A stretch of DNA of 64,000 nucleotides from Actinomycetota bacterium (GTDB lineage: Bacteria > Actinomycetota > Thermoleophilia > Solirubrobacterales > Solirubrobacteraceae), in assembly GCA_005883215.1 (NCBI GenBank), contig VAYS01000023.1, positions 1 through 64,000 of the forward strand. Direction: 5' to 3'. Made by a program: the position numbers and the translations under genes. Below the pieces are notes generated by a model that was given only the letters and a program-made list of their open reading frames with translations, was not told where the DNA came from and did not search any database. This document shows positions 37,675 through 39,563 of this stretch, in pieces; position 1 is the stretch's first letter; the number at the start of each line of letters is the position of its first letter.

Positions 37675-39123
37675 ATGAGCACTTTCGCCGAGCACCTCGA
37701 CCACCCGCTGGCCCGCGGGCACACCCCGGCCGACGCCTTCACCGGCGCCGCCGGCGGAGCCGCCTGCGGCGACCTCATTCGCCTATCCCTGGCCACCGAC
37801 GGCCGGCGGATCACCGACGCCGGCTTTGACGCCTCGGGCTGCGCTGCGGCGCTGGCCGCGGCCAGCGCGACGGTGGAGCTCGCGATCGGCCGCGGGCTGC
37901 TCGAGGCGGCCCGGCTCGGCGCGCAGGACGTCTCCGAGGCCCTCGACGGCCTGTCGCCGGCCAAGCGCCACGCCGCCGAGCTGGCCGCCGACGCCCTGCA
38001 CCGAGCCCTGGGCGCCGCGGTGCGCGAGCGCGGCGCGCTGGTCCCCCGGCCCGACCGCCTGCTGGTGGCGATGAGCGGCGGCGTGGACAGCGCCGTAGCG
38101 GCCTTGCTCTGCGCGCGCGCAGGCCAGACGGTGGGCGTCACCCTCGAGCTGTGGTCTGACCCCGAAAACGACGGCGAGCTCTCCTGCTGCTCGCCCCAGG
38201 CAGTGCGCGCGGCGCGGGCGCTGGCGCACGGAATGGGGCTCGCCCACCTGTCCATAGATCTGCGGGCCGAGTTTCGCGCCGGCGTCGTCGAGCCCTGGCT
38301 GGCCGAGCACGCCGCCGGCCTGACCCCCAACCCGTGCGTGCGCTGCAACGGAGGAGTGCGGCTGGAGGCGATGGTGGCGCTGGCCGACCGCGTCGGCGCC
38401 GCCGCGCTGGCCACCGGTCACTACGCGCGCGTGAAGCGCGGCCCCCACGGCCCGCTGTTGCGCCGTGCCGCCGACCCGGCCAAGGACCAGAGCTACATGC
38501 TCGCCGCGCTGGCGCCGGCCACGCTCGAGCGGCTGCGCTTTCCCCTCGGCGAGCGGTCCAAGCCCGAGGTACGCGCGCTCGCCGCCGACGCCGCTCTGCC
38601 GGTGGCGGACAAGCCCGACTCCCAGGACCTGTGCTTCCTGGCCGGCACCGGCCGGTCGGCGTTCCTGGCCCGCCACGGCCGCCTCGGCGAGCGCCCGGGA
38701 GCGATCGTCGACCGCCGCGGCCGGACCCTTGGGCGCCACCGCGGCGCCCACGGCTTCACGGTCGGCCAGCGCCGGGGCCTGCGCGTCGGCGGGGCCGGCG
38801 AGGCGCTCTACGTCCTGGCCACCGACGCCGACGCCAACACGGTGACCGTCGGCACCCGCGAGCAGCTGCGCACGAGCACGGTGTCGGCGCGCGACGTGAC
38901 GCTTTACCGCCCTGGTGCGGTGATCGACGGCGTCAAGCTCCGCTACCGCTCGGCCGCCCTGGCCTGCGAGCCCCTGTCCGGCCTGCCGTCCGGGACCCAC
39001 GAGCGCGTGGAGCTCTATCTGCGCGAGCCGATCCACGGCGCGGCCCCGGGCCAGCTCGCCTGCCTGCTCGCGGGCGACGTGGTCGTCGGACACGGCACGA
39101 TCGATCGTTCCGTCGCGACGTAG
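37675..39123 (+). CDS. mnmA: NifU/IscU-like domain fused to tRNA 2-thiouridylase MnmA
   Basis: 482 aa against ~360-370 for MnmA alone. Residues 1-~120 are a NifU/SufU-like Fe-S scaffold domain: C31 in GAACGD with D33, and C56 in DASGCAA. The third scaffold Cys, expected near KRHAAELAADAL (~100), is replaced by Ala. Residues ~125-482 are MnmA: PP-loop SGGVDS (134-139), NPCVRCN (C221, C224) and KPDSQDLCF (C320, the partner catalytic Cys), then the C-terminal beta domain. MnmA makes 2-thiouridine at position 34 of Lys, Glu and Gln tRNAs. The fusion suggests that sulfur or an Fe-S cluster is delivered in cis. Confidence 0.92.
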   Translation: MSTFAEHLDHPLARGHTPADAFTGAAGGAACGDLIRLSLATDGRRITDAGFDASGCAAALAAASATVELAIGRGLLEAARLGAQDVSEALDGLSPAKRHAAELAADALHRALGAAVRERGALVPRPDRLLVAMSGGVDSAVAALLCARAGQTVGVTLELWSDPENDGELSCCSPQAVRAARALAHGMGLAHLSIDLRAEFRAGVVEPWLAEHAAGLTPNPCVRCNGGVRLEAMVALADRVGAAALATGHYARVKRGPHGPLLRRAADPAKDQSYMLAALAPATLERLRFPLGERSKPEVRALAADAALPVADKPDSQDLCFLAGTGRSAFLARHGRLGERPGAIVDRRGRTLGRHRGAHGFTVGQRRGLRVGGAGEALYVLATDADANTVTVGTREQLRTSTVSARDVTLYRPGAVIDGVKLRYRSAALACEPLSGLPSGTHERVELYLREPIHGAAPGQLACLLAGDVVVGHGTIDRSVAT

Positions 39124-39245: not shown

Positions 39246-39563
39246 TCACCCGTCCTCCAGGCGTCGCTTCACTGAGTCCACCTTGTCGGCCAGCGTCTGG
39301 TCGGGGCGGTCGCGGCGCTCGTCGAGCTTGAGCACCGTGTACACGCGCGGTACCCCCAGCTCGAACGGGACGGCGTGCAGCTCGCCGACGATCGCCAGCA
39401 CGTCGGCGGTCGCCCCCTCCAGCGACGTGCCCATCGCGTGCATCTGGTAGCGCACCCGGTCCTGGGCGGCCAGGCGGCGCTGGATCTCGGCGATGTAGGC
39501 GCTCGCGCTCGGATCGGGGCGCCCAAGGGCTATGACGGTCAGGTCGGCCGTGGCCACGCCCAT
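39246..39563 (-). CDS. MTH1187-family thiamine-binding-like protein
   Basis: 105 aa. ADLTVIALGRPDPSASAYIA, YQMHAMGTSLEGATADVLAI and VYTVLKLDERRDRPDQTLADK match the MTH1187/YkoF-like ferredoxin fold that binds thiamine or related ligands. ATG 39563 lies only 13 bp from the divergent alaS start, so the two promoters must overlap heavily. Confidence 0.88.
   Translation of the reverse strand: MGVATADLTVIALGRPDPSASAYIAEIQRRLAAQDRVRYQMHAMGTSLEGATADVLAIVGELHAVPFELGVPRVYTVLKLDERRDRPDQTLADKVDSVKRRLEDG

What the first reader, a model, noticed from the sequence alone, without database searches (positions are those of the whole stretch)
37675..39123. Fe-S scaffold-like domain fused to the tRNA thiolase MnmA
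A NifU/SufU-type domain precedes a complete MnmA. Two of three scaffold Cys remain (C31, C56) and the third is replaced by Ala, so it may bind a cluster only together with MnmA Cys residues. MnmA itself has C221, C224 and C320, a three-Cys set compatible with a [4Fe-4S] cluster. This bears on the debated question whether MnmA uses an Fe-S cluster, and suggests delivery in cis without a separate Tus-type relay.
Basis: partly seen in the sequence, partly recalled or inferred. Interest (0 to 1): 0.62.

Follow-up and report, generated by a model that had tools for sequence, protein, structure and literature searches.

The report
tRNA thiolase fused to altered IscU domain
In many actinobacteria the enzyme that puts sulfur on tRNA carries a built-in copy of an iron-sulfur scaffold protein whose assembly site has been altered (here it keeps the metal-binding residues but lost the one that receives sulfur), so it looks repurposed and is not a simple cluster-delivery arm.

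Summary
The fusion is real: one ORF (37675-39123, 482 aa) holds an IscU/NifU domain (1-120) and a complete C-type MnmA. It is the only MnmA in a Solirubrobacterales genome. It is not a start error: 108 relatives are fused, against 25 free NifU genes beside mnmA, mostly in nifS-nifU-mnmA operons, in Clostridia, Dehalococcoidia and other actinobacteria. One Rubrobacter-type family has both forms.

All 25 free NifU copies keep C-D-C-H-C. None of 93 scorable fused copies does. In the window's group (65 proteins) the only invariant residues are C31, G32, D33, C56 and H99. These include the metal tetrad of mammalian ISCU, whereas ISCU's persulfide-receptor Cys is Ala or Gly. Other fused clades lose the His, keep only C31, or keep a Cys-less remnant, yet remain under purifying selection. 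MnmA's five Cys are intact in 109/109 fused proteins whatever the N domain holds.

Best reading: a repurposed IscU fold, probably a mononuclear Zn (or Fe) module, helping MnmA take sulfur from a cysteine desulfurase (here SufS; no IscS or TusA found). The sulfur role is inferred. Cys-Cys distances could not be measured.

The parts
37675..39123 (+). Fused gene: IscU/NifU-like domain + C-type MnmA (482 aa plus stop)
   Evidence: only MnmA in the genome
37675..38034 (+). N-terminal IscU/NifU-fold domain (residues 1-120)
   Evidence: Pfam NifU_N 6-113; IscU fold, 4eb5_C Z 21.5
37765..37773 (+). C31-G32-D33: first metal-ligand motif (CGD), equivalent to ISCU C35/D37
   Evidence: invariant in 65 of 65 members of the window's group
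37840..37842 (+). C56: second metal-ligand Cys, equivalent to ISCU C61
   Evidence: invariant in 65 of 65
37969..37974 (+). H99-A100: His ligand kept (ISCU H103), persulfide-receptor Cys (ISCU C104) replaced by Ala
   Evidence: role of ISCU residues from PMC6687725
38032..38046 (+). Short linker (residues 120-124) between the last IscU helix and MnmA strand 1
   Evidence: model secondary structure H95-119, E125-132; conserved spacing within families
38047..39120 (+). MnmA catalytic, central and C-terminal domains (residues 125-482)
   Evidence: 2hma Z 40.3, 2det Z 40.0
38074..38091 (+). PP-loop SGGVDS (residues 134-139), ATP/adenylation site
   Evidence: sequence; invariant in alignment A2
38185..38190 (+). 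C171-C172, the CC pair of C-type MnmA
   Evidence: C-type definition in PMC11784392
38335..38346 (+). CxxC motif (C221, C224) of C-type MnmA
   Evidence: present in 109/109 fused proteins
38632..38634 (+). C320, third active-site Cys (equivalent to E. coli Cys199)
   Evidence: present in 109/109 fused proteins

Best explanation
The protein is a C-type MnmA whose N-terminus is a repurposed IscU/NifU domain, most likely derived from the free nifU of a nifS-nifU-mnmA operon. Shown: the fusion, its wide occurrence, the predicted fold, and exact retention of the ISCU metal tetrad (C31, D33, C56, H99) with loss of the persulfide-receptor Cys (A100). Inferred: the domain binds one metal ion, most likely Zn (possibly Fe), and does not build a [2Fe-2S] cluster. 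Inferred: it helps MnmA obtain sulfur from a cysteine desulfurase, here SufS. It would do so by docking MnmA to the desulfurase, with C31 as the exchangeable ligand that may briefly carry the persulfide, as the first Cys of SufU does (own knowledge). Sulfur then goes to the MnmA cysteine site (C221/C224/C320), and MnmA adenylates and thiolates U34 of tRNA Lys/Glu/Gln as in other MnmA enzymes.
For: Invariance: among 65 proteins of the window's group (59 fused, 6 split) only C31, G32, D33, C56 and H99 are invariant, at 41% mean identity (chance that all four ligands are among them about 4e-7, ignoring relatedness). In mammalian ISCU, C35, D37, C61 and H103 but not C104 bind Zn or Fe, and C104 receives the persulfide (PMC6687725). 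Operon origin: free NifU with C-D-C-H-C lies beside mnmA, mostly directly downstream of nifS, in Clostridia and other actinobacteria. One Rubrobacter-type family has both split and fused forms behind nifS. Retargeting: PRNVG, LPPxK and C100-S101, invariant in free NifU, are relaxed in the fused set. In family f8 only C31 of the site survives (14/14). Selection: dN/dS of the N domain is mostly 0.09-0.35, near that of MnmA. Sulfur context: the genome has SufS-SufU but no IscS-type desulfurase and no TusA hit.
Against: No coordinates were available, so it is unknown whether C31 can reach the MnmA active site. The N domain joins the start of MnmA strand 1, and from general knowledge of HUP folds the active site lies at the other end of that strand. 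Motifs invariant in free NifU, including regions thought to face the desulfurase or chaperone, are relaxed, which weakens docking. A Cys-less remnant is kept in family f6, so sulfur carriage by C31 cannot be the function everywhere. IscU-type domains normally pair with IscS/NifS, not SufS. Metal identity is untested. The genome is about 93% complete, so the missing IscS and TusA could be gaps (though 22 of 23 genomes of the order lack a strong IscS-type hit).
Confidence: 0.42

Rival explanations
1. Cis cluster delivery: the N domain holds or assembles Fe or Fe-S and passes it to the MnmA [4Fe-4S] site, possibly sharing cysteines.
For: The ISCU tetrad can hold Fe(II) as well as Zn (PMC6687725). 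MnmA here is the C-type class, which carries [4Fe-4S] in Thermus (PMC8584467). Free IscU in the related operons has the full ligand set.
Against: None of 93 scorable fused domains keeps C-D-C-H-C. The persulfide receptor is lost in the window's group, so no cluster could be built in the known way. MnmA's Cys set is complete even where the N domain has one Cys or none. The LPPxK motif is relaxed.
Confidence: 0.15
2. Structural or tRNA/partner-binding module: a Zn-stabilised domain that improves folding, oligomerisation or tRNA binding, with no part in sulfur transfer.
For: The metal tetrad is kept without the sulfur receptor. The domain arrangement is predicted confidently (pTM 0.93) with a short linker of nearly fixed length within families. 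The Cys-less f6 remnant is still under purifying selection.
Against: Invariance falls on the ligand site. The free homologue sits with nifS in an operon. C31 alone of the site survives in f8. Some f7 genomes do without the domain.
Confidence: 0.32
3. Vestigial remnant: a by-product of operon fusion that is decaying.
For: Ligand loss is graded across families: f8 one Cys, f6 a 75-aa remnant, some f7 with no domain.
Against: In the window's group the four ligands are fixed in 65 proteins, and dN/dS is low and close to that of MnmA, even for the remnant.
Confidence: 0.09
4. Artefact: misassembly, read-through or a wrong start joining two genes.
For: Some families do have separate, adjacent genes.
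Against: There is a single open frame here and in 108 fused rows from many assemblies, including named MAGs and Rubrobacter.
Confidence: 0.02

Closest known systems
C-type MnmA (CC-CxxC-C), e.g. Thermus thermophilus MnmA
   Same: All three MnmA domains, PP-loop, CC pair, CxxC and third Cys
   Different: Carries an extra 120-residue IscU-fold domain at the N-terminus
IscU / ISCU / NifU (N-terminal scaffold domain)
   Same: Fold (Z 18-21, rmsd about 2 A) and metal ligands C, D, C, H
   Different: Persulfide-receptor Cys replaced by Ala/Gly; PRNVG and LPPxK motifs relaxed; fused to MnmA
SufU (Zn-dependent sulfur transfer protein)
   Same: Four-ligand site around the CGD Cys; SufU works with SufS, the only clear desulfurase in this genome
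   Different: SufU's fourth ligand is a Cys (own knowledge), here His; SufU profile score 39 bits against a cut-off of 92.5; structural match weaker than IscU (Z about 15)
nifS-nifU-mnmA operons of Clostridia and actinobacteria; yrvO-mnmA of Bacillus subtilis
   Same: Same parts (desulfurase, IscU-type protein, MnmA) encoded side by side; YrvO feeds MnmA directly (PMC5372745)
   Different: There the NifU is a separate protein with the full C-D-C-H-C set, or absent

Membership tests
MnmA (tRNA 2-thiouridine(34) synthase) | Equivalog-level profile match over the full length | tested here: met
   PRK00143 322 bits, cut-off 284; TIGR00420 275 bits, cut-off 237
MnmA (tRNA 2-thiouridine(34) synthase) | PP-loop SGGVDS and active-site Cys pair | tested here: met
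   SGGVDS at 134-139; C224 and C320
C-type MnmA | CC-CxxC-C motif | tested here: met
   C171 C172, C221 C224, C320; 109/109 fused relatives; definition in PMC11784392
C-type MnmA | Bound [4Fe-4S] cluster | not testable with these tools
   Shown for the Thermus enzyme (PMC8584467), not for this one
IscU/NifU Fe-S scaffold | IscU fold | tested here: met
   4eb5_C Z 21.5, 3lvl_A Z 19.5; NifU_N 79.6 bits
IscU/NifU Fe-S scaffold | Three conserved Cys including the persulfide receptor of the HC motif | tested here: not met
   A100 in place of Cys; 0 of 93 scorable fused domains keep C-D-C-H-C
IscU/NifU Fe-S scaffold | LPPxK and PRNVG motifs | tested here: not met
   Invariant or nearly so in 25 free NifU, relaxed in the fused set
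SufU | SufU profile and Cys-Asp-Cys-Cys zinc set | tested here: not met
   TIGR01994 39 bits, cut-off 92.5; last Cys is Ala100, His99 kept instead
SufU | Zn-dependent persulfide transfer from SufS | not testable with these tools
   Needs biochemistry; a SufS-SufU operon is present elsewhere in the genome

The most novel reading that the evidence does not exclude
An IscU fold turned into a dedicated metal-gated sulfur module for tRNA thiolation. By keeping the metal tetrad and discarding the persulfide receptor (or, in other lineages, discarding the His and keeping the Cys), the domain can no longer build clusters. It instead channels desulfurase sulfur into MnmA, a route distinct from Tus relays and from direct YrvO-type transfer.
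Probability: 0.33. Interest if true: 0.68.

Novelty: new variant of a known kind. Interest (0 to 1): 0.5.

Why it matters
How sulfur reaches C-type MnmA, the class shown to be cluster-dependent in Thermus, is poorly known. A natural fusion ties a desulfurase-partner fold to the thiolase. Its relatives form a series: free scaffold, fused with the metal site but no sulfur receptor, fused with one Cys, Cys-less remnant, no domain. The roles of metal, Cys and docking in sulfur delivery can therefore be separated with natural variants. It also warns that NifU_N annotation does not imply an Fe-S scaffold. No paper found in the held library describes the fusion, but that library lacks most subscription journals.

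Tried and rejected
Start misannotation: rejected, because split relatives have their own stop codons and fused ones a continuous frame. Shared cluster across domains: rejected as stated, because MnmA Cys conservation does not depend on the N domain. Simple SufU membership: rejected on profile score and ligand set. Decay without function: disfavoured by invariance and dN/dS. Statistical proof that fusion and loss of the full ligand set go together: not reached. The MnmA tree gave only 3 independent pairs, 2 in the expected direction, and many of its deep branches are weakly supported. Structure of the f6 remnant: inconclusive, since residues 1-51 of the L105 model have pLDDT under 50; its homology to IscU rests on order of motifs, position and weak profile scores, most but not all above shuffles. 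The first locus search with the N-domain alignment failed for lack of conserved stretches. Distances between C31/C56 and C221/C224/C320 could not be measured because the model's coordinates are not exposed. The original paper on Thermus MnmA is not held, so it is cited through reviews.

Full report
What is there. Window 37675-39123(+) encodes one 482-residue protein. Residues 6-113 match NifU_N at 79.6 bits and 128-476 match the three MnmA domains. NCBIfam assigns MnmA at equivalog level. It is the only MnmA in the 3.29 Mb genome (a second, 26-bit partial PP-loop hit is elsewhere). It sits between aspS and a Thiamine_BP gene on the other strand, followed by alaS, yqgF/RuvX and YceG/MltG. The closest named relatives are Solirubrobacterales. 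An AlphaFold2 model built on 65 sequences has mean pLDDT 95.3 and pTM 0.93, with the last IscU helix (95-119) joined by about five residues to MnmA strand 1 (125-132). Residues 1-120 match IscU structures (A. fulgidus 4eb5_C Z 21.5, rmsd 2.0) better than SufU (Z about 15); residues 122-482 match MnmA (2hma Z 40.3; 2det Z 40.0).

Distribution. Searches of 119 genomes of the class and 396 of the phylum, plus a scan of named genomes, were analysed ORF by ORF. Family codes f1, f2 and so on are the search tool's anonymous family labels. Fused proteins occur in f1-f4 and f6-f9 of the class, in Rubrobacter-type f20 and in f13, f52 and f70: 108 fused rows, about 105 genomes. Free nifU next to mnmA, mostly directly behind a nifS-type gene, occurs in f5, f26, Lachnospiraceae and other Clostridia, Tissierellales and an Actinomycetota MAG. 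The Dehalococcoidia contig has nifU-mnmA but begins too close to show what lies upstream. Within f20 six genomes are split and 18 fused, behind nifS in all but two short contigs. Some f7 genomes have MnmA without the domain. The MnmA tree needs about 5-11 changes of state, so fusion and fission probably happened more than once, but deep branches are weak.

The ligand site. Mammalian ISCU binds Zn or Fe through C35, D37, C61 and H103. C104 is not a metal ligand but receives the persulfide (PMC6687725). All 25 free NifU copies outside f20 keep the full C-D-C-H-C set. None of the 93 fused domains in which the site can be read does. In the window's group (f1-f4, f20 and named relatives; 59 fused and 6 split) the set is C-D-C-H followed by Ala or Gly in all 65. 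C31, G32, D33, C56 and H99 are the only invariant columns of 130 at 41% mean identity. The probability that all four ligands fall among five invariant columns by chance is about 4e-7, a rough figure that ignores relatedness. Families f7 (part), f9, f52 and f70 take the opposite route: His lost, Cys kept. Part of f7 and f13 lose more. In f8 only C31 remains of the site (14/14). In f6 a 75-residue Cys-less remnant remains. Motifs invariant in free NifU (PRNVG, LPPxK, C100-S101) are relaxed in the fused set. MnmA keeps all five cysteines in 109/109 fused proteins irrespective of the N domain. Pairwise dN/dS of the N domain is mostly 0.09-0.35 (one divergent f8 pair 0.69), close to MnmA, and 0.15-0.23 for the f6 remnant.

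Sulfur supply. The genome has one NifU_N besides this one, SufU, in a SufC-SufB/D-SufS-SufU operon. The only strong Aminotran_5 desulfurase is SufS. No TusA was found, while the control search rings in 11 of 14 known genomes. Across the order (f1-f3), 22 of 23 genomes lack a strong IscS/NifS-type hit; f5, f7 and f8 mostly have one. SufU-profile hits are present in all f1-f3 genomes. So SufS is the likely sulfur source here, an inference.

Mechanism. The domain cannot act as a known Fe-S scaffold in the window's group, because the persulfide receptor is gone. The retained tetrad predicts one metal ion. The operon origin with nifS and the persistence of C31 point to sulfur handling: docking to a desulfurase, with C31 as exchangeable ligand and possible transient carrier (compare SufU), and final transfer to the MnmA Cys site. 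Against this, motifs of the free NifU are relaxed and f6 has no Cys. A structural or binding role is therefore the main rival (0.32 against 0.42). Cis cluster or iron delivery is less likely (0.15).

Relation to what is known. MnmA enzymes are split into D-type and C-type (PMC11784392). The Thermus C-type enzyme has [4Fe-4S] (PMC8584467); the dispute concerns E. coli D-type MnmA. In Bacillus subtilis YrvO feeds MnmA directly without Tus (PMC5372745). Literature searches found no report of a NifU-MnmA fusion, with the limits of an open-access library. The protein is a member of MnmA by every feature tested. Its N domain belongs to the IscU family by fold and descent, but fails the residues that define a working scaffold.

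Limits. Family codes are anonymous, so taxonomy beyond named loci is approximate. The genome is 93% complete. No biochemical data on these fused proteins were found.

Noticed in passing
L219:2966-4978(-) (genome G012, family f8): A NifS-type desulfurase domain (Aminotran_5) fused behind a molybdopterin dinucleotide-binding domain in one long ORF; open frames of about 1150-1310 aa with NifS occur in several f8 genomes. It looks like a molybdoenzyme with its own sulfur source in cis.
   Followed up: partly
L078, L080, L083, L084 (family f7): In f7 genomes whose MnmA has no IscU domain, the CC pair (C171-C172) is altered in 4 of 7, while all fused proteins keep it. Small, related sample; may hint that the CC loop and the N domain act together.
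   Followed up: partly
L048-L056, L095-L097, L105 (family f6): A conserved, Cys-free stretch of about 75 residues precedes MnmA, probably an IscU remnant, still under purifying selection.
   Followed up: partly
window 39246-39563 (-): Small Thiamine_BP (PF01910) gene on the opposite strand, overlapping the start of alaS by about 30 bases.
   Followed up: no
L022 (G098), frame 1-2913: The fused gene lies in an open frame that runs about 500 codons upstream of the IscU domain; probably a GC-rich open frame, not checked.
   Followed up: no
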